Below, one piece after another: positions 324-17,851 of a stretch of 64,000 nt of DNA. The notes beneath the pieces were generated by a model. That model was not told the origin of the DNA. It made no database searches and saw only the letters and a list, made by a program, of their open reading frames with translations. The stretch is from positions 2,046,001 to 2,110,000 of the forward strand of contig NZ_JBBOCT010000001.1 of the NCBI RefSeq assembly GCF_038002605.1, in the 5' to 3' direction. Position numbers and translations under genes: made by a program. How positions within the stretch are numbered: position 1 is the first letter of the stretch; every line of letters starts with the position of its first letter. The DNA is from Bacillus sp. FSL K6-3431 (GTDB lineage: Bacteria > Bacillota > Bacilli > Bacillales > Bacillaceae_C).

Positions 324-2297
324 TTACTCTCTCACTGATTCATCATCTTGAGATTCTTCATTATCTTGAGATTTTTTATAGTTGTATTGTGATCGATCCA
401 CTGGAACAAAGCCTTCAGGAGTGTAAAAACGCAATAAATCTCCTGTTACTACTCTATCCGAAAGAGATAGCTTATAATTTACGGCTTCCTGATATTTCTT
501 AGCTTCTTCTATTTTATTCATTTCCAATTCCATTCCAGTACTTGAATCATAGAATTTACCATCAGCCGACGTAATCGTTGAACTGACAAAATCACCATTT
601 CGGAATGGTATTAGATCATCATGATTTTCAGATAATAAATCTGTTCCAAATTGTACATATTCCTTTGTATCTATTCCAACCATGTGAAGTAATGTTGGAA
701 GTAGATCTATTTGTCCACCGTATTCGTGATTCACTCCACCTTCTATACCTGGGACACGAATGAATAATGGTACTCGTTGTAAACCAGAGCTCTCAAAAGG
801 TGTAATTTCTTTTCCAAGAACCTTTTCCATTGCTTTATTATGATTTTTTGAAATGCCATAATGATCTCCATACATAATTATAATGGAATTGTCATATAAT
901 CCAGATTCTTTTAAGTAGGCAAAGAATTGTTCCAACGCCTCATCTGCATAACGAGCTGTTTGGAAGTACCTATCTACAGAACCATCACCTGTTGTATGTG
1001 GTTCAATTGTAGCATCTTCTTCATCTATCGGATACGGAAAATGATGTGATACCGTAATAAACTTTGAGTAAAATGGTTGAGGTAATGTTTCCAAAAGTGG
1101 AATTGACTCCTCAAAAAACGGTTTGTCTTTTAGGCCATAAGGAGCCATGTTTTCGGATTCCATATCATAATAGCTAGAATCAAAAAAGTGATTAAATCCA
1201 AGCGATTTATAAATTTCATTCCTATTCCAAAAGCTACCCGCATTTCCATGAAACACTGCAGAAGTATAACCTTTCTGTCCTAAGATAGCTGGAGCGGATT
1301 GGTAAGTGTTTAATCCTTTTGTTGTAAATGCTGCACCCTGCGGTAATCCATATAATGAATTTTCCAACATAAATTCAGCATCCGCTGTTTTACCTTGCGC
1401 AGTTTGATGGAAGAAGTTATCAAAATAAAGTGTATTTTCTTCGCTTGTCAATGAATTTAAAAACGGTGTGACTTCTTCTCCGTGCAATTTATAATCAATA
1501 AGGAAGTTTTGAATGGATTCAAGATGTAAATAAATAACATTCATTCCTTTTCCCGAAGCAAAGTAATCCGGATTTGGTTTGGCATAGTTAGATTTTGTAT
1601 AGTTTATTACTTCTGTCATATCGTCACTACTTGCGGTAACCCTTTGCGCAGTTGCTTTCGTACTTTGAACCGCATCATAAATAGTGTAATTGTACATACC
1701 TAAATATTTCACAATATAGTTTCGGTCAAATCCTCTAGTTAATAATTGAGGACGATCCGTTTCTGCTAAAGCTAGATTTACACTTGTGATAGCTAATCCC
1801 AATGAAAGTAAAGCCACTACCTTCCGACGATTCATGTTTTTGACCTCAATTTTTACGAATCGGAAAGCAAGAATAGCGATTAAAAAGATGATATCAATAA
1901 AAAATAAAAAATCATAAGGTTTTAATAGGGATACTATACTACCGCTAACGTCTCCAAAATTTTGGGTCTGTGTCAAAGTCGGTAACGTAATAAAATCATT
2001 AAAGAATCGGTAATATAAACTATTGGCATATAAAAGAAAGGATAAAAGAAAATCGATTACAATTAACCAAATATACTTTTTCCGTCCTTTAAAAAAGATA
2101 GCCAAGCCTAAAAATAGTAAGGATGATCCTAAAGGATTTAAAAACAATAGGAAGCTTTGAAGAGAATTTTCAATTCCTAAGTCAAACTGCGTTAATTGAA
2201 CGATATATGTTTTGGTCCAAAGAAAGAATACAGCCAAAAAGAAAAAGCCTATATATTTATTGAATATACCTTGAGCTTTTTGAAATATATTATTCAT
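324..2297 (-). CDS. ltaS: Lipoteichoic acid synthase (LtaS type)
   Basis: This 657-residue membrane enzyme polymerises glycerol phosphate from phosphatidylglycerol onto a glycolipid anchor outside the membrane. About five transmembrane helices fill residues 15-175, followed by an extracellular sulfatase-fold domain from about residue 245. The catalytic threonine is in QGKTADAEF (about residue 304). Metal-ligand motifs are visible in YLHLES (about 260) and YGDHYG. The ALA-E near residue 178-180 resembles the signal-peptidase cleavage zone of LtaS proteins. Length is normal for the family. Bacilli often carry several LtaS paralogues (LtaS, YfnI, YqgS, YvgJ), so the exact paralogue is not certain. 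It is a single-gene unit with its own terminator. Confidence 0.93.
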   Translation of the reverse strand: MNNIFQKAQGIFNKYIGFFFLAVFFLWTKTYIVQLTQFDLGIENSLQSFLLFLNPLGSSLLFLGLAIFFKGRKKYIWLIVIDFLLSFLLYANSLYYRFFNDFITLPTLTQTQNFGDVSGSIVSLLKPYDFLFFIDIIFLIAILAFRFVKIEVKNMNRRKVVALLSLGLAITSVNLALAETDRPQLLTRGFDRNYIVKYLGMYNYTIYDAVQSTKATAQRVTASSDDMTEVINYTKSNYAKPNPDYFASGKGMNVIYLHLESIQNFLIDYKLHGEEVTPFLNSLTSEENTLYFDNFFHQTAQGKTADAEFMLENSLYGLPQGAAFTTKGLNTYQSAPAILGQKGYTSAVFHGNAGSFWNRNEIYKSLGFNHFFDSSYYDMESENMAPYGLKDKPFFEESIPLLETLPQPFYSKFITVSHHFPYPIDEEDATIEPHTTGDGSVDRYFQTARYADEALEQFFAYLKESGLYDNSIIIMYGDHYGISKNHNKAMEKVLGKEITPFESSGLQRVPLFIRVPGIEGGVNHEYGGQIDLLPTLLHMVGIDTKEYVQFGTDLLSENHDDLIPFRNGDFVSSTITSADGKFYDSSTGMELEMNKIEEAKKYQEAVNYKLSLSDRVVTGDLLRFYTPEGFVPVDRSQYNYKKSQDNEESQDDESVRE

Positions 2298-2768: not shown

Positions 2769-3581
2769 TTAATTTTTTAAATCCTCCGATACCATCGCTA
2801 GACGCTCATTAATTCTTCTCTTTCGGTATAGCATCATCCCGGTCTCGGCTAGGTCGTTAACCGCGGAACGATTAATAAATGCACCGAAAATCAGCCCAAC
2901 AATTGGAATCATTTGAAAAAGCTTTTTCCAACCGACTTGATCCCTGTATGTAATTACAACTTCTCTCCATCCTTGGAGTTCTGAAATAACTTCTCTTTTC
3001 GCCTCTTCATCAGGAGAATCTATGAGAGATAATTGTTGTAATATCGCTTGTTTCCCTACAATATCTGAAGAAACAAACTGTAAAACCTTCACAATATGCA
3101 CTCTTTCCTTTTTATCGTTCGGATTATATCCGTAGCAAATTGCAATGTCCTGTAAAGTCTTTAATTGAAGACCTAAAAGCAATGGGATATCAATCGATAA
3201 AGTTAGAAATCCTCCAATACCCGTACTTGCACCTTGAAAGGTTGCCAGTCGCTTTCTGTTATTTATAAACCCGCTAACTGCCTCATCCATTTCTGCTATG
3301 GAAATACAATCTACATCTTCCAATGTATGGACATCTTTATGGGGATAATAGGATTTCAGTGAGGATACAGAACTTAAATATTTCCCCCCTGATTGAACAT
3401 ATTGACCTAATTCGTCTAGAATGATGCCAATCTTTTTTTGTAAAAATGCTGGAGTGACCCTGTCCAACAGTTTGAATGGAAGACGGCCAAGTTTTTCCCA
3501 AAACCATAAATCATTCTGATCTTTTTCCCAATCCTCACTTTTTTTCAGTTCTACAAGTAATTCCTCAATTGTTTCAACCAC
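2769..3581 (-). CDS. EcsC-family protein
   Basis: A 270-residue protein of the EcsC family (PF12787 type), matched over its whole length: an acidic N-terminus, a central FINNRKRLATFQGASTGIGG segment, a hydrophobic LSIDIPLLLGLQLKTLQDIA segment, and the conserved GWKKLFQMIPIVGLIFGAFINRSAVNDLAETGMMLYRKRR at the C-terminal end (named here only by its ends GWKK and YRKRR in alignment terms). The molecular role of this family is not settled. The likely start is GTG, about ten bases after AAAGGA. It lies about 100 bases downstream of the Spo0M-like gene on the same strand, so read-through from that operon is possible. Confidence 0.85.
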   Translation of the reverse strand: MVETIEELLVELKKSEDWEKDQNDLWFWEKLGRLPFKLLDRVTPAFLQKKIGIILDELGQYVQSGGKYLSSVSSLKSYYPHKDVHTLEDVDCISIAEMDEAVSGFINNRKRLATFQGASTGIGGFLTLSIDIPLLLGLQLKTLQDIAICYGYNPNDKKERVHIVKVLQFVSSDIVGKQAILQQLSLIDSPDEEAKREVISELQGWREVVITYRDQVGWKKLFQMIPIVGLIFGAFINRSAVNDLAETGMMLYRKRRINERLAMVSEDLKN

Positions 3582-3679: not shown

Positions 3680-4066
3680 CTAAATGATGTGAATGCTATC
3701 CTGATCCTTGCTTGCTACCCCTTCCTTAAAAGTGAGCTTTGTTTTAAAACGGTAAGATACTTCTTCGGTAGAAACTTGGACAGTAGCTGGTATTTTTAAT
3801 GTAAATGATATTTTATATACTTCTTCTGAATGGATAAGTTTTGACGTTAAAATGGTAGTTGTATTAATTATTTTTTCTAAACCCGATGATCGTTCCGTCA
3901 TGACCAAATCACAGTCAAATCGTTTTGCTTTTTGGTCGATGGTACCGCCTTTGATTATGAAATAGCCTTGAATACATTCACCAGCCTTATACGTTTGCTT
4001 AGGCAAAGTAAGATCTATTCGTGCAGAACCTATTCCCAATAGGGACATGTATCTTCTCAGTAACAA
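3680..4066 (-). CDS. Single-domain Spo0M-like (arrestin-fold) protein
   Basis: This 128-residue protein resembles the N-terminal arrestin-like half of sporulation-control protein Spo0M: SLLGIGSARIDLTLPKQTYK, then a beta-rich domain with IQGYFIIKGG. B. subtilis Spo0M is about twice this length, so this is either a one-domain paralogue or a truncated form; the stop codon looks natural. The start is TTG, about seven bases after a strong GGGAGGGTG site. The ATG six codons further in (MSLLGIG) has no such site. It begins 16 bases after the FbpB-like gene, so the two are co-transcribed and both lie downstream of the manganese riboswitch. Function is unknown. Confidence 0.75.
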   Translation of the reverse strand: MLLRRYMSLLGIGSARIDLTLPKQTYKAGECIQGYFIIKGGTIDQKAKRFDCDLVMTERSSGLEKIINTTTILTSKLIHSEEVYKISFTLKIPATVQVSTEEVSYRFKTKLTFKEGVASKDQDSIHII

Positions 4067-4082
4067 TAAACACCCTCCCGTA

Positions 4083-4211
4083 TCATTTATTTAGTTTTAA
4101 GTATTTTTCATCAACGCGTTTTTCAATCTTTTCAATTAATGCCTTATCTTTAAGAAGCTCTTCTTTGTTTATTTTAATTAATTCTGATAAGGATATTTTT
4201 CCTTTTTTCAT
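4083..4211 (-). CDS. FbpB-family small basic protein
   Basis: A 42-residue lysine-rich protein beginning MKKGKISLSELIKINKEELL and ending in a helical, charged tail (IEKIEKRVDEKYLKLNK). This matches the Fur-regulated basic protein B family, a protein thought in B. subtilis to act with the small RNA FsrA in iron sparing. The gene is supported by a strong GAGGTGAC site before the ATG and by tight spacing to the next gene. Unusually, it lies about 110 bases downstream of a manganese riboswitch terminator. An AT-rich 14-bp palindrome (TTAATAATTATTAA) near 4237-4252 is a weak Fur-box candidate. Confidence 0.8.
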   Translation of the reverse strand: MKKGKISLSELIKINKEELLKDKALIEKIEKRVDEKYLKLNK

Positions 4212-4324
4212 GTTGTTTTGTCACCTCGCCCAAGTTAATAATTATTAATTAAGGTCGTTTCATTCTTTCCATGCGTGTTCAATCACTATTAATCCATAAC
4301 ATCAAGTGAATGCCTGCTTTTCCA

Positions 4325-4362
4325 ACAAAAAAAACCTCTACCACTTGTGTGGTAAAGGTTTT
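4325..4362 (-). terminator. Riboswitch-controlled intrinsic terminator
   Basis: On the minus strand AACCTTTACC pairs with GGTAGAGGTT across a short loop and is followed by eight T. It sits directly after the manganese aptamer. Its 5' arm can alternatively pair with GGTAAAGGTC at 4377-4386, which would prevent termination. Confidence 0.9.
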
Positions 4363-4390
4363 TACGTGTATATAAAGACCTTTACCAATA

Positions 4391-4489
4391 GGTAAAGGTC
4401 TCGCTAACAACATTATGTTGCTAACAAAGCCGAGAGTTTTAAACTCCGTAATGACGACTTTGTTATAAAAGCTACTCCCCTTTAGGAGA
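4391..4489 (-). promoter_or_regulatory. yybP-ykoY manganese riboswitch aptamer
   Basis: The minus strand carries the hallmark AAAGGGGAGTAGC segment, then AACAAAGTCGTCATTACGGAG, then CTCTCGGCTTTGTT, a GCAACATAATGTTG stem, and the closing GCGAGACCTTT. These are the conserved helices and loops of the yybP-ykoY class, which senses Mn2+ and normally switches on MntP or TerC-type exporters. A sigma-A promoter lies upstream, a terminator downstream, and the first gene after it is the FbpB-like gene. Confidence 0.93.
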
Positions 4490-4510: not shown

Positions 4511-4539
4511 ATCATAAACAATCTCTATTAATTTGTCAA
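4511..4539 (-). promoter_or_regulatory. Sigma-A promoter of the riboswitch transcript
   Basis: TTGACA (4534-4539) and TATGAT (4511-4516) are separated by exactly 17 bases on the minus strand. The predicted transcript start, near 4503, leaves about 14 bases before the riboswitch P1 helix. Confidence 0.9.
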
Positions 4540-4601: not shown

Positions 4602-5690
4602 TTATCCGATTAACACATCTGCATAAGGATAGCGAACATTAGATTGATTTCGTTTTGCAAGGGAAAAAGCCAATGTTAGCGGACCTAGCTTTCCGAGAAG
4701 CATTATGAAAATAATTACTCCTTTCCCGATTGCACTTAGATCAGTGGTTATCCCCATTGGGAGTCCTGCTGTACCGATAGCAAAGACAATTTTAAATATT
4801 AATTACATAAATGGCAGATTCTCTGTAATGTTCAAGGTAAACTGTGCAATAAATATACATATTAAACTAATAATCGTAACAGCAAATGCTTTATATATAT
4901 GGGCGTGGTTAATTGTTCTGTTAAAATAGGTAACCTCTTTTTTCCTTTTAGAAAAGTTCCAACAGCAAGTAAAATAATTAAAAACGTAGTTAATTTAATT
5001 CCGCCTCCCGTCAATACGCTCCCAAGCACCTACAAACATCAGCAACAACATGTATAAAACTGTTGAATTTCAAAACCCCCGAATTCATTGTATTAAATCC
5101 AGCGGTCCTTGTTGTTACTGCTTGAAATAGGATTCCCACCACTTCTCCGCTGTGTCTAGTGCTTCAATTGTTTGAGGGTTTTGAAACTCCAATAAACAAA
5201 TAATAACGTCGAAACAGTATTTATAATCAATGTTCCATATTAGCTGAGTGCAATAACAGTTTTTAAATTTTTTTAGAATACCACATATCTGACAACACGG
5301 TATAACCAATCCCACCAATAATAATGAAACTGGTTATAGTAAGATTCACCATGGGATCACCTACATATTGTGACAATTTATCCGGCCATAAGGCAAATCC
5401 TGCATTATTAAAAGCGAAATTGAGTGAAGGTAACTGACGAAGATCCCTTTCCCCATCCACACTGCGGAACCCATTTAAAGCATAAAATTATTACAGCAAT
5501 TGCCTCAATCAAAAACGAAAAAACAAACAGATTACGGATGAGCATGATTACATCGTCGATGGATGTCTGATTTAATACCTTTTGTAAAACGATTCTTTGC
5601 TTTAAACCAATTTTTCTCCGCAGCATAATAAAAATCAGCATTGAAAAGGACATAATACCAAGCTTGACTACCGGAATAAGCAGCTTTATA
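4602..5690 (-). pseudogene. ktrB: Decayed KtrB/TrkH-type potassium transporter subunit
   Basis: Pieces of a KtrB protein appear in order but in different frames: IMSFSMLIFIMLRRKIGLKQ, then WVPQCGWGKG, FAFNNAGFALWPDKLSQYVG, VTTRTAGFNT, GGGIKLTTFLII, and the C-terminal IFIMLLGKLGPLTLAFSLAK ending VRYPYADVLIG. FNNAGF and TTRTAGF are the potassium selectivity-filter loops of this family. Several frameshifts break the gene, and the first roughly 80-100 residues are missing. It is therefore not expected to make a working channel. Its partner ktrA is not nearby. Confidence 0.88.
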
Positions 5691-5766
5691 TAAGCAATTA
5701 TGCATCGGCGGGATTCATCCAGATTTTTATCGAGAGTTCAAACGATAAACTTCCTATGAGAATCTT

Positions 5767-7256: not shown

Positions 7257-8231
7257 CTATTTAGACAATAGTTCAATAGCTTGATCCAATGATTTCTCAA
7301 TTGCGATTGGGGCGTATGTAAACCATGGATCTTCTTCAATATAGTAAACTTGGTTATTTTTTATTGCATCAACGTTCTTCCACAAAGCACTCTGTTCAAT
7401 TTGATTTAACATACCGCCTGCTTCTTTTGTTTCTTGCTCAAAAGAAAGCATGACAATTCTATCTCCCAAGAATTCCGGTAATTTTTCCATCGATATATCA
7501 TCATAGACAAATTCCTCAAATTTAGGATCCGTTTTTAATTTCTCTTGAATATAAGCAGGAGGCGTTAATTCCAATGAGCGGTAAAATACATGACCAATAT
7601 TCCTTGCGCCATATAGTCTAAGCGTGTCTTTTCCATATGTCATAAAAATGGATACAACCTCATCTTTACTAATTTTATTTACGATTTTCTTTCTTCCTTC
7701 TGAAGCCTTTTCATCTAACTTTACAATCCATGCATCTGCCTCTTTTTCCTTACCTAAAATATTTCCGACTTCATTTAATTGTGTGAAAACATCTCCATAT
7801 AGCCATGGAATAACAACGGTAGGAGCGATTTTACTTAGTTGCTCTACTTCTTCCTGATCTGCTGAAATTATTAAATCTGGAGCTAATTCCAATACTTTCT
7901 CGATGCTAAAAGGACTGCCAAGATCTTTTACACCATCTTGTAAATCACCTAAATAATCATTGTCTAATACATGAGTTGGTGCACCAATTGGTTTTACTCC
8001 AAGTGCGAGCATCGCATCTAAGTATTGTGTAGTTACTACACGCTTCGGATTGACAGGAATTTCTACTTCTCTTCCCGTTACATCTTTATACATTCTTGTC
8101 GATCCGTTCTCCTCTTTTTTACTATCATTTCCCGATATTGTCACTTGGGCTTCGTTTTTTCCGCAACCTCCTAAAAAAATAAAACAAAGCATGAGTGAAC
8201 CTAAAATAAGTAAATATGATTTCACTCTCAA
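7257..8231 (-). CDS. Siderophore-binding lipoprotein of an ABC importer (copy 1)
   Basis: A 324-residue periplasmic-binding-protein homologue (FecB/FepB, PF01497 type). The signal peptide ends in a lipobox, LGGC with Cys about 23, followed by the family start TGREVEIPVNPKRVVTTQYL, then ALGVKPIGAP, LAPDLIIS and KIAPTVVIP. It would be anchored outside the membrane and hand ferric siderophores to a FecCD permease. The start is TTG, seven bases after GGAGG; the longer open frame upstream crosses the Fur-box promoter and is unlikely to be translated. No permease gene is adjacent. Confidence 0.9.
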   Translation of the reverse strand: MRVKSYLLILGSLMLCFIFLGGCGKNEAQVTISGNDSKKEENGSTRMYKDVTGREVEIPVNPKRVVTTQYLDAMLALGVKPIGAPTHVLDNDYLGDLQDGVKDLGSPFSIEKVLELAPDLIISADQEEVEQLSKIAPTVVIPWLYGDVFTQLNEVGNILGKEKEADAWIVKLDEKASEGRKKIVNKISKDEVVSIFMTYGKDTLRLYGARNIGHVFYRSLELTPPAYIQEKLKTDPKFEEFVYDDISMEKLPEFLGDRIVMLSFEQETKEAGGMLNQIEQSALWKNVDAIKNNQVYYIEEDPWFTYAPIAIEKSLDQAIELLSK

Positions 8232-8255
8232 AGTATTGCCTCCTTGATATAGATA

Positions 8256-8324
8256 TTTGATAATGATAATCATTATCAAATTCGTGTATTGTATATTATA
8301 AACATTTTTAATTAATTTTGGCAA
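8256..8324 (-). promoter_or_regulatory. Fur box and sigma-A promoter
   Basis: A perfect 12-1-12 palindrome at 8256-8280 contains TGATAATGATAATCATTATC, an ideal Fur operator. Just upstream on the minus strand lie TATAAT (8295-8300) and TTGCCA (8319-8324) with an 18-base spacer. Fur bound here would overlap the transcript start and block the gene at 7257-8231 in iron-replete cells. Confidence 0.9.
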
Positions 8325-8536
8325 TGATAAAACTTTGCGAAAGGGCGTCTTGATTCCCCCCTCTTTTACAAGGGCAGCCAGTCGAACGATTGACTTTTGT
8401 AAATCCACGTGTGCTAAGGGCAAGATAGACACGATTTACTGACGCTTCAATTAACATGTTGATATCAATTGTTCCCGAGCAGTGTATGATCATTTACACT
8501 CACAATTTGCTATTACCCCTACGCAGAATAGTATGA

Positions 8537-9514
8537 TTATTTATTACCTTCCACTAGCTTATTTGCAATTTCCTCAGCTTGATATAATGCTGATAATGGG
8601 TCTGAATTAAAAAATTTTTTAATATCAAATTCGTATACATTGTTGTTTTTCACGGCATCAAAATTATTCCATATAGTTGGAAGTTTAACTCCTTCGCTCC
8701 CTTCACTTTTCATTGAAATGATATAGTCACCCATATAATCTCCGACTGTTTCCCAAGATGTATCTATACGTTCCTCTTTTTTATCAATGATGTCACTTTT
8801 AACACGTGGAGCAGGTGTCAATTCTAATAATCTATATGCAGCTTTGCTACCTCGCTCACCCAAATCACCGATGATCATTACATTTTTATCCATGCCATAA
8901 TCAGCAACTGTAAATGTTGCACCTTCTGGAATAACTTCCTTTATTTTTGCCTTGGCAGCATCGACACACTGATCAAAATCAGCTAGCCATTTCTTCGCGT
9001 CATCTTTTCTGTTCAATATTTCAGCCATTGCGTTAATTTCTTCATGAATTGAATTGTATTTAGTAGTATCGTAAACAATTGTCGGTGCAATTTTTGAGTA
9101 ATTCTCATATGCTTCTTGATCCCAAGTAATGATTAAGTCCGGTTCAAGTTCCAGTACTTTTTCCATTGAAACTGCACCCTCTACACCAATATCCTCGATG
9201 CCATCTGATACAAGCCGCTTCAAAAACGCACCATAATCTGTTAAAGTTGAAGGTGCTCCAACTGGCATTAGACCTAAAGCCATAACTTGTCCTAAATGCC
9301 AATCAACTACAACACGCTCAGGATGATCAGGCACGTCAACTTCACCCATTACTGTTGATATTTTCCGAGTTTCTGCATTGCTTATTTTATGACCAGTTGT
9401 TTCAGTTTGCTCTTGATCTTTTGTCGCATTTACATCATTTGAACAGGCGCAAAGTAATAAAACAAACCCTAATGTTACTATTGATTTAATCACTAGCTTT
9501 GATCTTTTTAACAT
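8537..9514 (-). CDS. Siderophore-binding lipoprotein of an ABC importer (copy 2)
   Basis: A 325-residue FecB-type binding protein. The lipobox is LLCAC with Cys about 24. Family landmarks are EVDVPDHPERVVVDWHLGQV, ALGLMPVGAP, LEPDLIITWD and the C-terminal WNNFDAVKNNNVYEFD. I prefer the ATG at 9512-9514 (MLKRSKL) because GGGAG lies nine bases ahead. No Fur box as clear as that of copy 1 is seen upstream, only a weak AACGATGGTGATTA stretch near 9610. Confidence 0.88.
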   Translation of the reverse strand: MLKRSKLVIKSIVTLGFVLLLCACSNDVNATKDQEQTETTGHKISNAETRKISTVMGEVDVPDHPERVVVDWHLGQVMALGLMPVGAPSTLTDYGAFLKRLVSDGIEDIGVEGAVSMEKVLELEPDLIITWDQEAYENYSKIAPTIVYDTTKYNSIHEEINAMAEILNRKDDAKKWLADFDQCVDAAKAKIKEVIPEGATFTVADYGMDKNVMIIGDLGERGSKAAYRLLELTPAPRVKSDIIDKKEERIDTSWETVGDYMGDYIISMKSEGSEGVKLPTIWNNFDAVKNNNVYEFDIKKFFNSDPLSALYQAEEIANKLVEGNK

Positions 9515-9716
9515 TGTCATATACTCCCTATCCGTATTTTCATATACCTTTTTTATCATACTAAAATCTGATATTCTTCTTTGTAATTTGTTCTTCTACT
9601 ACTCTATAATCACCATCGTTATTTAAGCCTTATATGATTTAAGGATACATATGATGATTTCTCCTTGATAAAATGAGCACTCTGCCACCAAGATTTGCTT
9701 CAAAGTCTAATCGCTT

Positions 9717-11432
9717 TTACATACTAAATTGCGCTTCGTGAAGCCTGTTATAAGCGCCTTTTAAAGCAAGTAGCTCATAGTGACTTCCTTGTTCAGCTAT
9801 CCCATCCTCTGTAACAACAATAATCCGATCTGCATTTTTAATTGTTGCTAATCGGTGCGCAATCACAAGCGTAGTACGTCCTACCGATAATTCTGTTAGG
9901 GCCTGTTGAATTGCGACCTCCGTTTCAGTATCTAGTGCAGATGTAGCCTCATCCAAAATGAGGATAGATGGATTTTTTAGGAACATTCGAGCAATGGATA
10001 GACGTTGTTTTTGACCACCAGATAGTTTGACACCTCGTTCTCCAATCAATGTATCCATCCCTTCAGATTGTGATAAAATGATATCTTCCAACTGAGCTCT
10101 TCTTGCCGCTTCCCATATCTCCTCTTCAGAAGCAAGTAGATCGCCATATGCTATATTCTCTCGAATCGTTCCATCAAATAGATATACATCTTGTTGGACA
10201 ATTCCAATTTGAGAGCGGAGAGATGCAAGGGTCATTTGTCGAGTCTCCATTCCATCAATCAGTAAAGAACCTTCCTTAATATCGTAAAAGCGAGGTAAAA
10301 GACTACAAATCGTCGTTTTCCCAGCGCCGGATGGCCCAACAAGGGCTACTGTTTCTCCTGCATGAATCGTTAAATTGATATTAGCTAATACGTTCTCTTT
10401 GCCCTCATAACCAAACGATACGTTTTGGTATTCTATATTCCCTTCCAAATGTTGGACAGTGATTGCATCCGGTTCATCCGCTACATCAGGCTCAGTTTCA
10501 AGCATCTCTATGTAGCGCTTAAATCCAGCAATACCTTTTGGATACATTTCAATCACGCCGTTGATTTGTTGAATTGGTCCTAAAAACACATTCGACAGAA
10601 GCACAAAGGCAAGGAACTCTCCGTACGTCATATCTTTATTGATCACAAACCACGTTCCGCATAGCAGAACAAACAATGTGACAATTTTCATGAGAATATA
10701 GCTAATGGATGAATTCCAAGCCATCACACGATAGGCAATTAATTTTGAATCACGAAAACGCCCGTTATTATCATTGAATTGAGCGATTTCATGATCTTCA
10801 TTGGAAAATGCTTGAACGACACGCATACCACTCACATTGTTTTCTACACGTGCATTAAAATCGGCAATATCTGCAAAGAAGCGCCTAAATGCGATAGACA
10901 TTTTCTTACTGAAGTACAATGATAGACTGATAATAAGTGGAACAATAATAAAAGTAAGTACAGCCAGTTGTGGGTTTATCGTGAACATGATTGCAAATGC
11001 ACCAGTGAGAGTCATAAAAGCGATGAACAAATCCTCAGGCCCATGATGTGCAATTTCACCAATATCCATTAAATCGTTTGTCATTCTTGAAACCAAATGA
11101 CCAGTTTTATTATTATCAAAAAAGCGGAACGATAACTTCTGTACATGCGTGAAAAGATCTTTTCGCATATCCGACTCTATATTAATGCCTAACTTATGTC
11201 CCCAGTAGGTGACAATATAATGGAGAGCCGCACTGATAATATAAATTCCGAGTAACGAGACGCATCCCCATAAAATCCAACTCCAGTTTGAGCTAGGTAA
11301 CAAATCATCTACAACACGATGGACCGCTAGCGGAAACGCTAGTTCCAATAATGCTGCTATGATTGCACAAGAAAAATCGAGATAGAAAAGTTTTTTATAA
11401 GGTTTGTAATAAGAGAAAAAACGCTTTAACAA
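9717..11432 (-). CDS. ABC exporter half-transporter (copy 1)
   Basis: A 571-residue fusion of a six-helix membrane domain (about residues 15-300) with an ATPase domain. The ATPase shows Walker A GPSGAGKTT, the Q-loop IGIVQQDVYLF, signature LSGGQ, Walker B ILILDEATSALD and the H-loop IAHR. It belongs to the MdlB/MsbA-like exporter group, working as a homo- or heterodimer. It is closely related, almost segment for segment, to the gene at 32762-34480. Its place among siderophore genes suggests export of a siderophore or a related drug, but nothing in the sequence fixes the substrate. The start is TTG, about 11 bases after GGAG. Confidence 0.92.
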   Translation of the reverse strand: MLKRFFSYYKPYKKLFYLDFSCAIIAALLELAFPLAVHRVVDDLLPSSNWSWILWGCVSLLGIYIISAALHYIVTYWGHKLGINIESDMRKDLFTHVQKLSFRFFDNNKTGHLVSRMTNDLMDIGEIAHHGPEDLFIAFMTLTGAFAIMFTINPQLAVLTFIIVPLIISLSLYFSKKMSIAFRRFFADIADFNARVENNVSGMRVVQAFSNEDHEIAQFNDNNGRFRDSKLIAYRVMAWNSSISYILMKIVTLFVLLCGTWFVINKDMTYGEFLAFVLLSNVFLGPIQQINGVIEMYPKGIAGFKRYIEMLETEPDVADEPDAITVQHLEGNIEYQNVSFGYEGKENVLANINLTIHAGETVALVGPSGAGKTTICSLLPRFYDIKEGSLLIDGMETRQMTLASLRSQIGIVQQDVYLFDGTIRENIAYGDLLASEEEIWEAARRAQLEDIILSQSEGMDTLIGERGVKLSGGQKQRLSIARMFLKNPSILILDEATSALDTETEVAIQQALTELSVGRTTLVIAHRLATIKNADRIIVVTEDGIAEQGSHYELLALKGAYNRLHEAQFSM

Positions 11433-11552
11433 TATGGATCACGCTCCTAAATTTCCACATATTTTTACTACTTTCTTTTATTAGACACTTAAATTCTTTT
11501 TCGGTATTTAGGTCTTAATCTGTTCAAAGGAGCTTTACATATCATTTCCAGC

Positions 11553-12531
11553 TTAATTCTTCATCATAAGTTTAGGCAATTCATCTAATAGCCTTTCTCT
11601 AGTGATCGGGTCATCAAAGTTCCATAGACTGTCCATGATATATACATGTCCGGTTTTAACAGCTGGAATCATTTTCCAGGTGTCGCTATTCAAAAGATTT
11701 TCAGTTTCTGTAGTAGTTTCTTCACTTTGATCTGTCAAAACAAACAGTACATCGCCTGCGTACTCTGGTAATACCTCCTCAGAGATATCAGAGAATCCGT
11801 CGCCATTGTCAATCAGTTGTTTCACTTTTTCTGCTGGTTGGAAACCAAGCATTCATATAATGATACACTCAAACCTTGATGCCCTATCACATATAGTTGC
11901 TCCCCCATTTGTAATAGTACAGTTGCTGTCTCATGGGATTGAATATCAAGATTCAACAATTCCTTCGTCTTTTCCGCTTTAGCTTGATAGTTTGTTATGA
12001 AAGAATCCGCTTCGGTCTTTTTACCGAATATTTCCGCAACTCTCTCCAAACGTTCGAACGTTCCAACTTCACCAATTACGACAGTTGGATCAATTTTTGC
12101 CAATGAATCAATCGCCTTGTCATCCCAGTCATTAAACACGATCAAATCCGGATTCAGTGCAATAATCTTTTCAAGGTTTGCAGGATAACCAATATCCTCC
12201 ATCCCTCCAAGGAGATCGGGATAAGCTACCTGCGTACCGATTACTTGTAAACTAGATCCTAATGGTTTAACGCCAAGTGCCAACAGATCACCTGGATCGC
12301 TGCCGATATAAACAACTCGTTGCGGATTAACTGGCACTTGGACTTCACGACCCTTGGAAATTAGATAATTGGTATGCTTAGCCTCACCTTCTGATCCGGC
12401 ATCCGTTAGCTTATCTACTGGCTCTGACTTACTTGCATCTTTAGAAATGTTTGAGTCTGTTCCACATGCTAAAATCAGTATCATTGTCAGGAAAGCTGGA
12501 CATATTATAGTAATCCATTTTTTAGTGCCAC
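11553..12531 (-). pseudogene. Siderophore-binding lipoprotein (copy 3), frameshifted
   Basis: The two halves of a FecB-type binding protein lie in different frames. The first part starts at a GTG nine bases after GGAGG (MALKKWITIICPAFLTMILI, lipobox LILAC) and runs through GREVQVPVNPQRVVYIGSDP to about 11850. The remainder continues in another frame (LGFQPAEKVKQLIDN through KTGHVYIMDSLWNF). A single-base indel near 11845-11852 explains both. Apart from the indel the gene looks fresh, so it was inactivated recently or carries a sequencing error. Confidence 0.85.
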
Positions 12532-12651
12532 CCTGCTTTTCCTCCTAATCTCCCACCAAAATCATAATAGTGGCGTTTTCGTGCTTTTACTGACGGTAAT
12601 ACTAGTCTAACACTAGCTATTTTGATATTTATCTTTCTCAATGTCGAATTA

Positions 12652-13620
12652 CTATTCAGGCTTCTTCTTAGAAACTAGCATATCAGCCACTTCTTCCACT
12701 TGCGCTAAAACTGCAATTGGATCGTACGGCCAAAAAAAGTCCGGATCAAGATAGAAAATTTTATCATTTTTAACAGCGTCGATCGAAGCCCAAACAGGAT
12801 CTTCTTTGTCTAACACCCCACCATTTGATTGATCAAAAAAGATATAATCTCCGGCATAATTAGCCAACACCTCAAAAGAAACCTGTTTGTACGTCTCACC
12901 TGCATCGATTAGTTCTGTTTTAACAAGTTCTGGCGGCGTTAATCCAAGATGTTTGTAAATTGCTTGCCCACCACGGTAAATACCATCACCATAGATATAA
13001 GAGTCTTTATCAAAAGCCCCAAAGATAGAAACTGTTTCTCCCTCGTCCATTACTTTCTGGACTTTATCGCGCTGTTCTTGAACTTTCTTATCAAAGTCCG
13101 ATAACCAGGCTACTGCTTCTTTATCCTTACCTAGCATCTCTCCTATTGCACTTACTTCCTCGTAAACATCACCATATGTTTCGTAAGGTATAATGACAGT
13201 CGGAGCGATTTTAGAAAGTTGATCAAATGTGCCTTTTTCAGCATCAGCACTTATGATTAAATCTGGATTTAAACTCATGATTGCCTCAATAGAGTTCTCT
13301 CCTGTACTTTCAATACCAGTGATTAAATCCTGGATATGAACGTTCTCAAGGTCTCTTTTTGTTGCCCCAACAGGTTCCGTCCCTAGTAAAAGCAATGTAG
13401 GTAAATATGCATCTACAACAATTCTTTTAGCGTTAGCGGGTATTTCAATATCACCATGAATGGTGTTAACTGTTCTTATTTCTGGTTGTTCTCTTGCGGA
13501 CGATTCGAGCTCTTGCTTACTATTAGTGGTTTCGCTACCCGAACTACTACAAGCAGCCATAACAATAGAAATCATAACGAGTAACATACTAAGGACAACA
13601 TACGATTTTTGCTTTAACAA
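12652..13620 (-). CDS. Siderophore-binding lipoprotein of an ABC importer (copy 4)
   Basis: A 322-residue FecB-type protein with lipobox MAAC (Cys about 24) followed by a serine-rich linker. Landmarks are HGDIEIPANAKRIVVDAYLP, LLGTEPVGAT, LNPDLIISAD, KIAPTVIIPYE, and the C-terminal AVKNDKIFYLDPDFFWPYDP. The start is TTG, seven bases after AGGAGG. It is closest in character to copies 1 and 2, suggesting duplication followed by divergence in ligand preference. No clear Fur box is seen upstream. Confidence 0.9.
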   Translation of the reverse strand: MLKQKSYVVLSMLLVMISIVMAACSSSGSETTNSKQELESSAREQPEIRTVNTIHGDIEIPANAKRIVVDAYLPTLLLLGTEPVGATKRDLENVHIQDLITGIESTGENSIEAIMSLNPDLIISADAEKGTFDQLSKIAPTVIIPYETYGDVYEEVSAIGEMLGKDKEAVAWLSDFDKKVQEQRDKVQKVMDEGETVSIFGAFDKDSYIYGDGIYRGGQAIYKHLGLTPPELVKTELIDAGETYKQVSFEVLANYAGDYIFFDQSNGGVLDKEDPVWASIDAVKNDKIFYLDPDFFWPYDPIAVLAQVEEVADMLVSKKKPE

Positions 13621-13697
13621 TATTATTCCTCCTAATTAATGAAGATTCTCGTTTTTTAATAGCCCACTCTATTACGCTTCGGCGTGATTCAGTCCAA

Positions 13698-13723
13698 AAT
13701 GTATCGAGCTTGCTCGATACATT
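13698..13723. repeat. Perfect 12-bp inverted repeat
   Basis: AATGTATCGAGC and its exact complement flank two T bases. There is no T-run after it on either strand, so it is a poor terminator. It lies between two binding-protein genes, just before dispersed repeat copy B. Confidence 0.6.
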
Positions 13724-13733
13724 CCTAAATCTG

Positions 13734-13855
13734 TGACATCCGCCGAACGCATTTAACTTTATGCAGCTAGGGTTTTGAAGCCCACTGAATTATAGAACTG
13801 TTTTGCGTTCATCTTGCCATTTATAGAAGTGGAGACTTCTGCTAAATGAAGTTAA
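13734..13855. repeat. Dispersed noncoding repeat, copy B
   Basis: It shares with copy A the opening TGACATCCGCCG, the middle TTTTGAAGCCCACTGAATTA and GCGTTCAT, and the end ACTTCTGCTAAATGAAGTTAA, in the same order and spacing. Confidence 0.7.
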
Positions 13856-13923
13856 TGTGTAGATTTCAACATATTTTTAGCTGCATGTGTTATGTGGAGA
13901 AAGTACCCTTCTCTGCATATCTA

Positions 13924-14892
13924 TTATTTAGTAAGGGATTCTACTACCCCGTCTATAATTTGCGTGTTTGCAATTACACCTGCATATAACCAGCTAGTAT
14001 CTGAACCGTATTCATAAATTTGGCCATTTTGCACAGCAGGAATGTTTTTCCACAAAGGGTCTTTTAGCATTTCTGCACCATTTCCTTTGTCGCTATTAAT
14101 TAAGAAAAGATGATCTGCATCAAGTTCAGCTAAACGTTCTAAAGAAACCTCTGACCAATTTCCCGTTGCAGTGCTGGAAATTTCTTTGACTACACTTGGG
14201 GTTGAAAGACCAAGATCTCCATATAACACAGTGCCACTAGATACATTTTCGCTAACGATATAGAAAGTATTATTTACAAGCCAAATCGCAGCAGCTGATT
14301 CCGAGCCAACATAATCTTGTATCAACTTCTTCGATTCTGCGGCCTTCATTTCATATTCTTTTAATACTTTTTTCGCTTCTGATGTTTTTCCAAAAATGCC
14401 ACCCATGGTTAATAACTGCTCTCTCCAATCGCCATTATTTTCTTCTTCCACAACATAAGTTGGAGCAATTTTATTGTATTGTTCGTATTTAGACCCTTCG
14501 ACAGCATGTGCAGAACCCATAATGATTAAGTCGGGCGTAAAGCTGGCCACAACTTCAAATGGTAATTCTGACGGAATCGACGGTACTTCTTTTAAATAAT
14601 CCTGGAGATAATTTTGTACCCCTGCACCGTCATTAATCCCCCACTGTGCAACAGGTTTAATTCCAAGTGCGACTAAATTATCTTCTAAATAGGAAGCAAT
14701 CACCCTTTTAGGATTTGCGGGAATAGTAACTTCATGTCCCATTACATCCGTTATTGTACGCCCTGTTGATGTTTCTTCTATAACTGGTTCAGATTGCTTA
14801 TCTTCATTCTTTTTATCGTTACATCCAACTAGAATGAATAAAAGCACTAAAAAACTTGCAATCATTCTTGTTACTTTTTTATGATTAGACAA
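13924..14892 (-). CDS. Siderophore-binding lipoprotein of the FecCD importer (copy 5)
   Basis: A 322-residue FecB-type protein with lipobox ILVGC (Cys about 24), followed by GHEVTIPANPKRVIASYLED, ALGIKPVAQW, TPDLIIMGSAH and KIAPTYVVEEE. It is the last gene of the ATPase-permease-permease-binding protein operon, so it is the best candidate for the cognate binding protein of that importer. I choose TTG at 14890-14892, ten bases after GGAG, because the resulting signal peptide is compact. A GTG three codons upstream is the alternative. Confidence 0.9.
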   Translation of the reverse strand: MSNHKKVTRMIASFLVLLFILVGCNDKKNEDKQSEPVIEETSTGRTITDVMGHEVTIPANPKRVIASYLEDNLVALGIKPVAQWGINDGAGVQNYLQDYLKEVPSIPSELPFEVVASFTPDLIIMGSAHAVEGSKYEQYNKIAPTYVVEEENNGDWREQLLTMGGIFGKTSEAKKVLKEYEMKAAESKKLIQDYVGSESAAAIWLVNNTFYIVSENVSSGTVLYGDLGLSTPSVVKEISSTATGNWSEVSLERLAELDADHLFLINSDKGNGAEMLKDPLWKNIPAVQNGQIYEYGSDTSWLYAGVIANTQIIDGVVESLTK

Positions 14893-14967
14893 CTTTTCCA
14901 CTCTCCAATATCCTTTTATAACAATAGTAGTAGTCCCTCTCATTAGCTGACTATTAGACATTTTCCA

Positions 14968-16005
14968 TCAATCTTTTAAGCGTGAAAGTAAGTAAAGGAA
15001 GTACGGTGCACCTATCACAGCGACAACAATACCTGCTGGAATTTCTGATGGTTGTAAGATCCAACGACCGATTGTATCCGCAACAATAACCAACAGCCCT
15101 CCTGTCAAAGCAGAAGCCGGAATTAAAATTTGATGTTTAGACCCGACAAGTTGACGAGCCAAATGGGGCCCAATTAGTCCGACAAATCCTATACCTCCGC
15201 TAACTGATACACTAGCTCCTGCTAATCCTACGGCAGCTGCGAGTAAAATACGCCGCTCTTTTTCAATCGATGTTCCGAGACCTGTTGCCGTTAGATCACC
15301 TAGATTCAATACGTTAAGCACACGTGCTCTCGAATATACAAATGGAATTAAAACAATGACCCAAGGTAATAGCGAAAATACAAACTTCCAATTTGATCCC
15401 CATATACTTCCTGCTAACCAAGTTGCCACAAACTGATAATTTTCTGGACTTAAACGGAGGGTTAACACGATCATCGCTGAACTAATACCTGCAGCAACTG
15501 CAACGCCTGTTAATAATAGCCGCATTGGTGAGATTCCCTCATATCGTTTATAGGCTAATGAATAAATAATAATGGCTGTAATGCCTGCGCCTGTAAACGC
15601 CAAAACTGGGAGTAAAAATACTGGAGCTGCTGTCGTTGATGGGAAAAAGGAAATAAAAAGCATAACTGCTAGCCCTGCTCCCGCGTTAATCCCTAATATT
15701 CCCGGATCAGCTAATGCATTGCGGGATATCCCCTGTAACACGCAGCCTGATACAGCAAGTCCCATACCTACAAGAATGGAAATAATAATCCGTGGCAAGC
15801 GAAATTCATACAATACAAGTTGCTGCTTTTCGTTCCCTAAACCAAACAATGTACGCATTACTTCCAATGGAGACAACCTGATGAATCCCGTATTCATGCT
15901 AATAATAATAACGATGATTATGAGCAAACCAAGAGTAGCAATGATCAGTCGATTTCGAGTATGTATTTTATGTTGAATATGCGTCATAAACGGCTTTTCC
16001 TTCAT
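14968..16005 (-). CDS. FecCD-family siderophore ABC permease (second)
   Basis: A 345-residue, roughly ten-helix membrane protein. Family motifs include LPRIIISILVGMGLAVSGCV, LADPGILGINAGAG, the loop GGIGFVGLIGPHLARQLVG that contacts the ATPase, and a C-terminal PAGIVVAVIGAPYFLYLL. The ATG follows GGAGGG and overlaps the stop codon of the upstream permease gene by four bases, a sign of coupled translation. The two permeases probably form a heterodimer, like FhuB/FhuG or FeuB/FeuC. Confidence 0.93.
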   Translation of the reverse strand: MKEKPFMTHIQHKIHTRNRLIIATLGLLIIIVIIISMNTGFIRLSPLEVMRTLFGLGNEKQQLVLYEFRLPRIIISILVGMGLAVSGCVLQGISRNALADPGILGINAGAGLAVMLFISFFPSTTAAPVFLLPVLAFTGAGITAIIIYSLAYKRYEGISPMRLLLTGVAVAAGISSAMIVLTLRLSPENYQFVATWLAGSIWGSNWKFVFSLLPWVIVLIPFVYSRARVLNVLNLGDLTATGLGTSIEKERRILLAAAVGLAGASVSVSGGIGFVGLIGPHLARQLVGSKHQILIPASALTGGLLVIVADTIGRWILQPSEIPAGIVVAVIGAPYFLYLLSRLKD

Positions 16006-17048
16006 AGTTCTTTCCCTCCTTTTCGTGCGAGATACAGGAAGAATGGAACCCCAATTAAAGCAATCAAAGCACCAATTGGTGTTTCATAAGGAGGATTAAT
16101 CATTCTCGCACAAAGATCAGCCAAGACAACTAACAGTCCTCCTAGAACAATCGAGCAAGGAATAATCCACCGATAATCATGTCCGACTAGAAAACGAGTT
16201 AGATGGGGAACAATTAACCCAACAAAACCAACTGCGCCTACAACAGAAACGGCTGCTCCGGCCAAAATAAGCACAAAAATCATTCCAAATACTTTAATGG
16301 TCTTTGTTCGTTGACCGAGTCCAATAGACACTTCTTCACCAAGACTTAATAATGTAATCGACCGTGACAGAATCACTGCGCCAATCATGGCCACCAAAAT
16401 CCAGGGTGACATAATTTGGAGGTGAATCCATTTCGTACCCGATACACCACCCGCATACCAAAAGGCCAAATCTTGACCGATTCGGAAATATAGTGCAACA
16501 CCTTCACTAAGTGCGGCTAACAATGCACTAACCGCAGCTCCTGCAAGCACAAGACGCATGGGTGTTAACCCGCCTCTTGACATGGAACCGACCCCATAAA
16601 CAATTCCAACACCTAACCCAGCACCTAAAAACGAATACATGATTAAATACATATAAGGTAGACCTGGAAAAAGGGCGAAGCATAGGGCAAGCATAAATGC
16701 AGCGCCCGAATTAAGTCCCAATAGTCCAGAATCGGCTAATGGATTTCGAGTCATTCCTTGCATCAGTGCACCAGATACTGCGAAACATGAACCAACCAGC
16801 GCTGCACCAAGAACACGTGGCATCCTGATTTCTCGAATAATTTGATGGGAAGTTAAATCTGCATTAAATTGAAACACCGCCTCCCAAACGGTAGTGAACT
16901 TAATGTCAGCAGCTCCAAAGGAAATAGATAATCCAATTGCAATCAGCAATGCTAATATGCCCCCAAATAAAACAACGACAGCAATAATTGGATGCGAATG
17001 CTTCTTTATTTCTTTTAATTCTGTGGTCACTTCCGCTCGGGTAGACAT
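16002..17048 (-). CDS. FecCD-family siderophore ABC permease (first)
   Basis: A 348-residue permease with the same fold as its neighbour: IREIRMPRVLGAALVGSCFA, NPLADSGLLGLNSGAA, the ATPase contact loop GAVGFVGLIVPHLTRFLVG, and IGALIALIGVPFFLYLARKG. The start is the ATG (MSTRAEV) nine bases after GGAGG. The longer open frame runs back into the ATPase gene. Confidence 0.93.
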   Translation of the reverse strand: MSTRAEVTTELKEIKKHSHPIIAVVVLFGGILALLIAIGLSISFGAADIKFTTVWEAVFQFNADLTSHQIIREIRMPRVLGAALVGSCFAVSGALMQGMTRNPLADSGLLGLNSGAAFMLALCFALFPGLPYMYLIMYSFLGAGLGVGIVYGVGSMSRGGLTPMRLVLAGAAVSALLAALSEGVALYFRIGQDLAFWYAGGVSGTKWIHLQIMSPWILVAMIGAVILSRSITLLSLGEEVSIGLGQRTKTIKVFGMIFVLILAGAAVSVVGAVGFVGLIVPHLTRFLVGHDYRWIIPCSIVLGGLLVVLADLCARMINPPYETPIGALIALIGVPFFLYLARKGGKEL

Positions 17049-17059
17049 ACTTTTCCTCC

Positions 17060-17851
17060 TTACTTCTTCTGACACATTTGATAAGATAAACAAATTGGGT
17101 TCGTACTAAATGGGCATGTCACTATACTTGCATCAATATTAAAAACCAGTTGTAAATTTGGACAAGTCATCAGTTCGGCTGGCGTACCTTCTCTCATTAA
17201 TACACCATCCTTCATAGCAATCATGTAATGGGAAAATCTCGATGCGTGATTTAAATCGTGAAGTACCATAATGATTGTGCGACCTTCCTCTTCATTAAGT
17301 CGCTGCAAAAGCAGTAATATGTCCAGTTGATGAGCCAAATCTAAATACGTTGTTGGTTCATCAAGAACCAGGATTTCTGTGTCCTGGGCAAGCGCCATCG
17401 CAATCCATACCCGTTGCCTTTGACCACCGGATAATGCATCAATCGGACGATCAATAAACTCATTTAATCCAGTTACATCAATTGCCCAGTAAATAGATTC
17501 ATAGTCTTCCTTTTTTAAAGAGCCAAACCCCTTTTGATGAGGAAACCGGCCATATGAAACGAGCTCAAATACAGTTAATCCCCCGGGTGCATCCGCTGTT
17601 TGCGGCAATATCGCCATCTTTTTGGCAACATCTTTCGTCGCTAGTTGATGGATGGCATACCCATCTAAATAGACAGCGCCACTTTTCATTTTTAATATTC
17701 TAGATATTGCTTTCAATAAAGTTGATTTCCCGCAACCATTTGGACCAATAATCGTTGTTATTTTATTTTTTGGGATGGAAACACTTAAATCCTCAATTAT
17801 CAGTGCGTTTGAATAGCCAATGGCTACCTGATCTACTTTTAAATCTTCCAT
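17060..17851 (-). CDS. Siderophore ABC importer ATP-binding protein
   Basis: A 263-residue ATPase of the FecE/FhuC/YusV type. It has Walker A IGPNGCGKSTLL (about 36-47), signature LSGGQRQR, Walker B ILVLDEPTTYLDL and H-loop MVLHDLNHASRF. The C-terminal tail holds three cysteines (CPFSTNPICLSYQMC), similar to tails in other bacillibactin-type ATPases. As first gene of the operon, with the Fur-controlled promoter about 180 bases upstream, it energises uptake through the two permeases that follow. Confidence 0.94.
   Translation of the reverse strand: MEDLKVDQVAIGYSNALIIEDLSVSIPKNKITTIIGPNGCGKSTLLKAISRILKMKSGAVYLDGYAIHQLATKDVAKKMAILPQTADAPGGLTVFELVSYGRFPHQKGFGSLKKEDYESIYWAIDVTGLNEFIDRPIDALSGGQRQRVWIAMALAQDTEILVLDEPTTYLDLAHQLDILLLLQRLNEEEGRTIIMVLHDLNHASRFSHYMIAMKDGVLMREGTPAELMTCPNLQLVFNIDASIVTCPFSTNPICLSYQMCQKK

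What the first reader, a model, noticed from the sequence alone, without database searches (positions are those of the whole stretch)
4083..4489. Manganese riboswitch placed in front of an FbpB-like small protein and a Spo0M-like protein
The yybP-ykoY aptamer normally controls Mn exporters (MntP, TerC). Here the first gene is a 42-residue basic protein of the FbpB family, known from iron-sparing regulation, followed by a one-domain Spo0M-like protein. No exporter is present. This suggests a small protein made when Mn is high, perhaps tuning Mn/Fe balance, analogous in concept to MntS-type small proteins. I know of no described case.
Basis: partly seen in the sequence, partly recalled or inferred. 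Interest (0 to 1): 0.85.

Follow-up and report, generated by a model that had tools for sequence, protein, structure and literature searches.

The report
Manganese riboswitch operon without its exporter
A manganese-sensing RNA switch sits in front of a tiny basic protein and a single-domain arrestin-fold protein; the arrangement recurs in many Bacillaceae, sometimes together with a known manganese-handling gene, which suggests that these two uncharacterised proteins help cells cope with excess manganese.

Summary

It is not a one-off. Of 80 named loci that encode the single-domain Spo0M-like protein, 77 have the aptamer upstream on the same strand (64 of the 67 not used to build the model). 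Controls lack it: 0 of 20 longer-frame Spo0M loci, 0 of 17 other FbpB-family loci, 0 of 29 EcsC loci outside the genus. Distant short Spo0M-like genes have it in 8 of 20. FbpB lies between in 62 of 80; TerC, a usual Mn-riboswitch target, follows in 16 of 80.

Conserved, mutually exclusive helices predict a Mn-ON transcription switch. The proteins' role is inferred: accessory factors of TerC-type Mn handling. A Mn/Fe link through FbpB is untested; Fur boxes are not enriched. The regulation is of a known kind; the gene set was not found in my paper searches, but the two founding Mn-riboswitch papers are not held.

The parts
4511..4539 (-). sigma-70-like promoter TTGACA-17-TATGAT
   Evidence: 11 of 12 matches; a site of at least 10 of 12 lies upstream of the aptamer in 70 of 77 relatives
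4380..4489 (-). yybP-ykoY (Mn2+) aptamer with the start of the toggle hairpin
   Evidence: RF00080 4486..4406, 33.5 bits, E 5.3e-7, below the gathering score; own model R1 122 bits
4479..4484 (-). segment 1, 5' strand of switch helix P1.1 (TAAAGG)
   Evidence: pairs with segment 2 in 216 of 216 cells of 36 leaders
4391..4399 (-). segment 2 (ACCTTTACC): pairs with 1 (ON) or 3 (OFF)
   Evidence: 2:3 paired in 319 of 324 cells
4378..4386 (-). segment 3 (GGTAAAGGT): pairs with 2 (OFF) or 4 (ON, antiterminator)
   Evidence: 3:4 paired in 320 of 324 cells
4330..4363 (-). intrinsic terminator: segment 4 (4361..4351) with segment 5 (4342..4332), then a T run
   Evidence: 4:5 paired in 393 of 396 cells; -20.1 kcal/mol
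4083..4211 (-). 42-aa FbpB-family (PF13040) small basic protein
   Evidence: 46.6 bits against a cut-off of 25; net charge +5 by K+R-D-E and third-position excess of differences in relatives
3680..4066 (-). 128-aa single-domain Spo0M-like protein (PF07070, N-terminal half only), TTG start
   Evidence: 61.1 bits, profile 2-134 of 213; model pLDDT 89.8, best solved match B. subtilis Spo0M 5cl2
2769..3581 (-). EcsC-family protein (PF12787), third gene of the run in this genus
   Evidence: 239.7 bits; follows in 9 of 9 operon loci of the genus, truncated in one

Best explanation
This is a Mn2+-ON transcription-attenuation operon. Shown by sequence: a promoter-like site, a yybP-ykoY aptamer, and a conserved chain of five overlapping segments leading to a terminator, followed by fbpB-like, spo0M-N-like and, here, ecsC. 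Inferred: at high cytosolic Mn the aptamer docks and helix P1.1 (1:2) forms, which frees segment 3 to pair with segment 4 so that the terminator (4:5) cannot form; at low Mn 2:3 and 4:5 form and transcription stops before fbpB. Inferred with less certainty: the core product is the arrestin-fold, single-domain Spo0M-like protein, an accessory factor for Mn handling at the membrane that works with TerC-family proteins, which share its gene run in some species and in this genus sit behind their own copy of the riboswitch. The FbpB-like peptide is an optional first partner. EcsC is a lineage-specific third gene.
For: 77 of 80 named loci with the Spo0M-like gene carry the aptamer upstream on the same strand, E at most 6.4e-29; 64 of 67 loci not used to build the model. 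9 of 9 operon loci of the genus by Rfam alone. Controls: 0 of 20 longer-frame Spo0M loci, 0 of 17 other FbpB-family loci, 0 of 29 EcsC loci outside the genus. Both alternative pairings kept in 36 leaders. P1.1 is the described switch helix of the L. lactis Mn riboswitch (PMC11087558, passages). Promoter-like site upstream in 70 of 77 and no internal one enriched. TerC in the same run in 16 of 80, and in each of the 16 genomes of the genus at least one TerC behind its own RF00080 match.
Against: No experiment shows Mn control here. The Rfam score is below the curated cut-off. The number of base pairs with a change on both sides is not above shuffles (2 against a mean of 1.3; 3 against 2.1), although cells with such changes are. 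64 of 80 loci show no TerC among the first three ORFs behind the Spo0M-like gene, and the TerC pairing changes at least 5 times on the tree, so the functional link is loose. Distant short Spo0M-like genes have the aptamer in only 8 of 20, and second copies L231 and L239 lack it. FbpB is absent from 18 of 80.
Confidence: 0.7

Rival explanations
1. FbpB is the point of the operon: high Mn makes a small iron-sparing helper that lowers demand for Fe proteins, since excess Mn disturbs Fe-S and haem proteins; the Spo0M-like gene only travels with it.
For: B. subtilis FbpB acts with the FsrA sRNA in iron sparing (PMC7430163, passages). Excess Mn affects Fe-S cluster and haem-protein biogenesis (PMC9603457, start of abstract in a listing). 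FbpB is the first gene where present, 62 of 80.
Against: FbpB is absent from 18 of 80 loci with the Spo0M-like gene and 77 of 80 keep the riboswitch; it is broken in L. lenta and L. citri while the Spo0M-like gene stays intact. No Fur-box enrichment (the window has one site of 11 of 14). The other FbpB-family genes of the genus lack the aptamer, 0 of 17. RNA binding by FbpB has not been shown.
Confidence: 0.15
2. The regulation is as described, but the 2:3 hairpin and the 4:5 hairpin are two terminators in a row, the first answering to Mn directly as in the TerC leader, rather than an anti-antiterminator plus terminator.
For: In the same genome's TerC leader the 2:3 hairpin is followed directly by a T run. 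Here 2:3 is very stable (-18.6 kcal/mol).
Against: In the window 2:3 is followed by only CTTTATATA, and 4:5 would stop transcription regardless of Mn unless 3:4 prevents it; 3:4 is conserved in 320 of 324 cells.
Confidence: 0.25
3. Chance: a rearrangement left a riboswitch stranded in front of unrelated genes.
For: Fragments of a K+ transporter gene lie just upstream (TrkH match), so the neighbourhood has decayed.
Against: The same order recurs in 77 of 80 named loci.
Confidence: 0.02

Closest known systems
yybP-ykoY Mn2+ riboswitches, e.g. B. subtilis ykoY (meeY), L. lactis yoaB, E. coli mntP and alx
   Same: Aptamer core and P1.1 switch helix; transcriptional ON logic as described for L. lactis (PMC11087558, passages); TerC is a target in the same genome
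   Different: First genes are an FbpB-family peptide and a single-domain Spo0M-like protein; the platform has a separate antiterminator and terminator behind the 2:3 hairpin, whereas the TerC leader of this genome seems to use 2:3 as terminator
B. subtilis FbpB
   Same: PF13040 by curated score; small and basic
   Different: Known FbpB is Fur-regulated and acts with FsrA (PMC7430163, passages); here a Mn riboswitch precedes it and Fur boxes are not enriched
B. subtilis Spo0M (5cl2)
   Same: Arrestin-like N-terminal domain, best solved match in sequence and fold
   Different: Only the N-terminal half is present; longer-frame Spo0M loci show no Mn aptamer, 0 of 20
TerC family (MeeY/YkoY)
   Same: Shares the riboswitch class; co-located in 16 of 80 relatives
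   Different: Not in the window's own operon; TerC stands alone behind another riboswitch copy in this genus
MntS of E. coli (recalled)
   Same: Small protein in Mn homeostasis, in concept only
   Different: From memory, made at low Mn under MntR; here predicted at high Mn; no sequence relation was tested

Membership tests
yybP-ykoY Mn riboswitch (RF00080) | covariance-model score at or above the curated gathering score | tested here: not met
   33.5 against 45 bits, E 5.3e-7; the TerC-linked copy of this genome, 43 bits, also fails, and 18 of 28 genus matches do, so the cut-off is strict for these genomes
yybP-ykoY Mn riboswitch (RF00080) | conserved core GGGGAGUAGC and P1.1 switch helix competing with the terminator pathway | tested here: met
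   core in window and 77 of 80 loci; 1:2 in 216 of 216 cells, competing 2:3 in 319 of 324; core motif recalled, P1.1
yybP-ykoY Mn riboswitch (RF00080) | binds Mn2+ and raises expression | not testable with these tools
   needs in-vitro transcription or a reporter
FbpB family (PF13040) | curated Pfam score | tested here: met
   46.6 against 25 bits
FbpB family (PF13040) | Fur regulation | tested here: inconclusive
   best Fur-box match at least 11 of 14 in 3 of 77 leaders against 49 of 770 shuffles; window 11 of 14
Spo0M (PF07070) | curated Pfam score | tested here: met
   61.1 against 23 bits
Spo0M (PF07070) | two-domain, full-length protein | tested here: not met
   128 aa, profile 2-134 of 213; matches residues 4-127 of the 252-residue 5cl2 chain. 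Filed as Spo0M-like single domain, not as Spo0M
EcsC (PF12787) | curated Pfam score | tested here: met
   239.7 against 30.4 bits
MntS-type small proteins | made at low Mn, repressed by MntR (recalled) | not tested
   no MntR-site search was made; the predicted switch is Mn-ON, the opposite sign

The most novel reading that the evidence does not exclude
A widespread Bacillaceae Mn-stress module: a single-domain bacterial arrestin acts as an adaptor that gates or places TerC-type Mn exporters at the membrane or translocon, and a co-induced FbpB-family peptide couples Mn excess to iron sparing; both are made only when a Mn riboswitch is on.
Probability: 0.2. Interest if true: 0.85.

Novelty: new variant of a known kind. 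Interest (0 to 1): 0.62.

Why it matters
Mn riboswitches are known for exporters and TerC proteins. Here the same switch is tied, across many genera and with controls that lack it, to two uncharacterised proteins. That hands a testable condition (excess Mn) to a bacterial arrestin-fold family annotated only as 'sporulation protein', and to a branch of the FbpB small-protein family whose studied member acts in iron sparing. It also makes it testable whether TerC-type Mn handling uses an arrestin-like partner. The regulatory half is ordinary in kind; the gene content is the surprise.

Tried and rejected
The first genome-contig scan, with the window protein alone, found no relative; the second, with an alignment as query, gave 80 loci, the tool's maximum. 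NCBIfam named none of the three proteins. Fur-box enrichment: not found. Internal promoter: not enriched. The EcsC model was too poor to search with (pLDDT 66.7). The tree gave no single origin for the TerC pairing; 28 of 73 inner branches are open. A PyrR-site match on the toggle hairpins (27.5 against 54 bits) was read as mimicry. Whether B. subtilis YybP is related was not settled. Paper searches; lists were capped and mostly only titles and abstract starts were seen; one paper holding riboswitch, manganese and Spo0M together (PMC5052260) was not opened. Dambach 2015 and Price 2015 are not held.

Uneven rows: the 80 named loci include near-identical species; all were kept. Thirteen of the 80 trained model R1. 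A5 holds the window and 35 of the 77 leaders, picked for diversity. The 20 longer-frame Spo0M loci are 20 of 32 listed with open frames of 252 aa or more; the order listing itself was cut. Anonymous genomes overlap the named ones (G006 is L. lenta and G011 Bacillus sp. FJAT-50079 by contig coordinates), so their counts are not independent. L095 has a chance core match upstream of the real aptamer. Downstream genes were taken from the first three ORFs of at least 90 aa within 3.5 kb, and one representative per cluster was named by Pfam. The promoter shuffles kept base content only.

Full report
What is there. On the minus strand the window holds, in order: a promoter-like site TTGACA-17-TATGAT at 4539..4511; a yybP-ykoY aptamer that Rfam places at 4486..4406 with 33.5 bits, E 5.3e-7, under the curated score of 45; a hairpin with core 4399..4378; an intrinsic terminator at 4363..4330; a 42-codon gene 4211..4083 of family PF13040; a 128-codon gene 4066..3680 matching positions 2-134 of 213 of the Spo0M profile; and an EcsC-family gene 3581..2769. 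The 201-nt leader folds at -72.9 kcal/mol, 9 s.d. below shuffles. The low Rfam score is not peculiar to this copy: the other match of the genome, before a TerC gene, scores 43.

Conservation in the genus. Sixteen genomes are held. Nine have the Spo0M-like gene, and in all nine loci, the window's included, an RF00080 match lies upstream (E 4.5e-7 to 0.0032). The 28 RF00080 matches of the 16 genomes divide into 17 before TerC, 9 before FbpB/Spo0M-like, 1 before an intact EcsC with what reads, by eye, like a decayed Spo0M-like gene between (L034), and 1 with no recognisable gene (L029). EcsC follows in the nine, truncated in one (L036). Each of the 16 genomes has at least one TerC behind its own match. 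FbpB is frameshifted in L006 and stopped early in L010 (by eye; no intact frame for the same two species). By contig coordinates G006 is Lederbergia lenta, so the window is of a Lederbergia-type genus.

Conservation beyond the genus. A scan with the alignment of the nine proteins returned 80 named loci, the tool's maximum. In 77 the core motif lies upstream of the Spo0M-like start on the same strand (163 nt away in L115 to 833 in L099), and a covariance model, R1, built from 15 aptamers matches all 77 with E at most 6.4e-29. Thirteen of the 80 loci were training rows; of the other 67, 64 match. The misses are L052, whose contig starts 300 nt upstream, so it cannot be judged, and L069 and L100, which are sister rows on the tree (100/99) and so look like one loss. 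Record titles name, among others, Lederbergia, Metabacillus, Peribacillus, Cytobacillus, Mesobacillus, Rossellomorea, Domibacillus, Robertmurraya, Neobacillus, Pseudoneobacillus, Halalkalibacter and Pseudalkalibacillus.

Controls and contrary results. R1 finds nothing in 17 loci of other FbpB-family genes of the genus and nothing in 20 loci of Spo0M genes with open frames of 252 to 349 aa from the order (Rfam shows no Mn aptamer there either). Among 20 more distant short-frame relatives (129 to 206 aa) it matches 8, one weakly (places, stretches). These genomes overlap the named ones. EcsC loci outside the genus: 0 of 29, with the caveat that closer EcsC relatives exist that I did not examine. 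So the link is with one subfamily of single-domain Spo0M-like proteins, not with Spo0M, FbpB or EcsC at large.

Gene content. A profile search finds an FbpB-like frame between aptamer region and Spo0M-like gene in 62 of 80 loci; 60 of these 62 have a start and 34 to 56 codons, and differences from the window number 877, 639 and 1267 at codon positions 1, 2 and 3, the pattern of a coding gene. Among the first three ORFs behind the Spo0M-like gene on the same strand come TerC in 16 of 80, a DUF1232-type protein in 22, a weakly kinase-like protein in 20 (Pkinase below its cut-off), a STAS-domain protein in 11, a CNNM/CorC protein in 8, and EcsC in 7 plus one truncated (some loci hold two or three, and one representative per cluster was checked by Pfam). 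On the tree the TerC label needs at least 5 changes even when only well-supported branches count, so the following gene has been exchanged repeatedly; 28 of 73 inner branches are open.

The switch. In 36 leaders (A5) five segments chain together: 1 (TAAAGG), 2 (ACCTTTACC), 3 (GGTAAAGGT), 4 (AAACCTTTACC), 5 (GGTAGAGGTTT). Pairing 1:2 corresponds to P1.1, the described switch helix of the L. lactis Mn riboswitch (PMC11087558, passages read). Standard pairs are kept in 216 of 216 cells for 1:2, 319 of 324 for 2:3, 320 of 324 for 3:4 and 393 of 396 for 4:5. Cells changed on both sides number 7 in the ON set and 15 in the OFF set, against shuffled means of 2.2 and 3.3, and sliding the partners destroys the pairing; but the number of pairs with such a change (2 and 3) is not above shuffles, and related rows inflate cell counts. 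Energies are -18.6 (2:3), -20.1 (4:5) and -16.0 (3:4 stretch) kcal/mol. The reading: Mn stabilises 1:2, segment 3 then pairs with 4, and the terminator cannot form. In the same genome's TerC leader the 2:3 hairpin is itself followed by a T run and I see no segment 5, so the fbpB leader looks like that switch with an added antiterminator and terminator; tandem terminators remain a rival.

Promoter. Within 100 nt upstream of the aptamer core a site of at least 10 of 12 matches is present in 70 of 77 loci (shuffled 44 of 770), mostly ending 27 to 32 nt before the core; between terminator and Spo0M-like gene it is present in 4 of 70 (shuffled 54 of 700). Sequence gives no support to a separate promoter for the small gene.

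The proteins. The Spo0M-like protein models well (pLDDT 89.8, 46 sequences); its best solved match is B. subtilis Spo0M 5cl2 (TM 0.80 by query length), then arrestin N-lobes; translocon TRAP subunits and glycosidase domains also score, so nothing finer is read from the fold. B. subtilis Spo0M has been linked to cell division and membrane proteins (PMC5325327, abstract and passages). B. subtilis FbpB is a Fur-regulated partner of the FsrA sRNA with no evidence so far of RNA binding (PMC7430163, passages). Fur boxes are not enriched in the 77 leaders (3 with at least 11 of 14 matches, against 49 of 770 shuffles), though the window has one of 11 just before fbpB.

Most likely working. High Mn turns on the operon; the arrestin-fold protein and, where present, the FbpB-like peptide are made with, or in parallel to, TerC. 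B. subtilis TerC proteins are reported to export Mn and to metalate secreted enzymes at the translocon (PMC12096827 and PMC10246235, passages), so the simplest role for a co-regulated soluble arrestin-fold protein is that of an accessory to TerC-type Mn handling. This is inference from co-occurrence; 64 of 80 loci show no TerC in the run.

Known or new. The riboswitch class and its logic are known. For the gene set, no paper holds TerC with Spo0M, and the listings for FbpB with manganese (20 of 44 shown), riboswitch, manganese and Spo0M (12 of 388 shown) and further combinations showed no description in titles and abstract starts. Older surveys, in the passages I read, name TerC and membrane proteins as yybP-ykoY targets (PMC2211319, PMC3766115). 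The two founding papers of 2015 are not held and could list some of these genes. I therefore call it a new variant of a known kind, with that caveat.

Noticed in passing
window 4602-5700 (minus strand): Fragments of a TrkH/KtrB-type K+ transporter gene in several frames, directly upstream of the promoter; one fragment passes the Pfam cut-off.
   Followed up: partly
window about 7257-17851 (minus strand): A long run that looks by eye like siderophore-iron uptake: several substrate-binding proteins, two FecCD-type permeases and an ATPase; not run through a family search.
   Followed up: no
L001 1430-1660 (minus strand): The TerC leader of the same genome seems to use the 2:3 hairpin as terminator and keeps a lone copy of segment 4 near the start codon.
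   Followed up: partly
L029 around 1501-1666: RF00080 match (43.3 bits, G005) with no ORF of at least 50 aa behind it in the stretch held: an orphan riboswitch or a decayed target.
   Followed up: no
L074 2567-2676 (+) and L105 7907-7800 (-): Further Mn aptamers (80.8 and 93.4 bits) ahead of a YtvI-like membrane protein plus a second membrane gene (L074) and ahead of a protein-kinase-like ORF (L105) (names by eye).
   Followed up: partly
L057, L064, L065 near 600-800 (minus strand): About 4 kb from the fbpB operon another Mn aptamer precedes a distant TerC relative (25% identity) in three Metabacillus records.
   Followed up: partly
L111 (record titled Chryseobacterium sp. ISL-80): A Bacteroidota-labelled record carries a Bacillaceae-type operon nearly like that of L112; probably a mislabelled or contaminated assembly.
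   Followed up: no
L211, L213, L214, L215, L220: Distant short Spo0M-like loci have below-cut-off cspA-thermoregulator matches nearby, on the strand opposite to the Spo0M-like gene in each.
   Followed up: no
window 4325-4476 (minus strand): A PyrR-site match (27.5 against 54 bits) falls on the toggle and terminator hairpins; a B. methanolicus study lists a yybP-ykoY plus PyrR pair before ykoY (PMC4342826, passages), perhaps the same mimicry.
   Followed up: no
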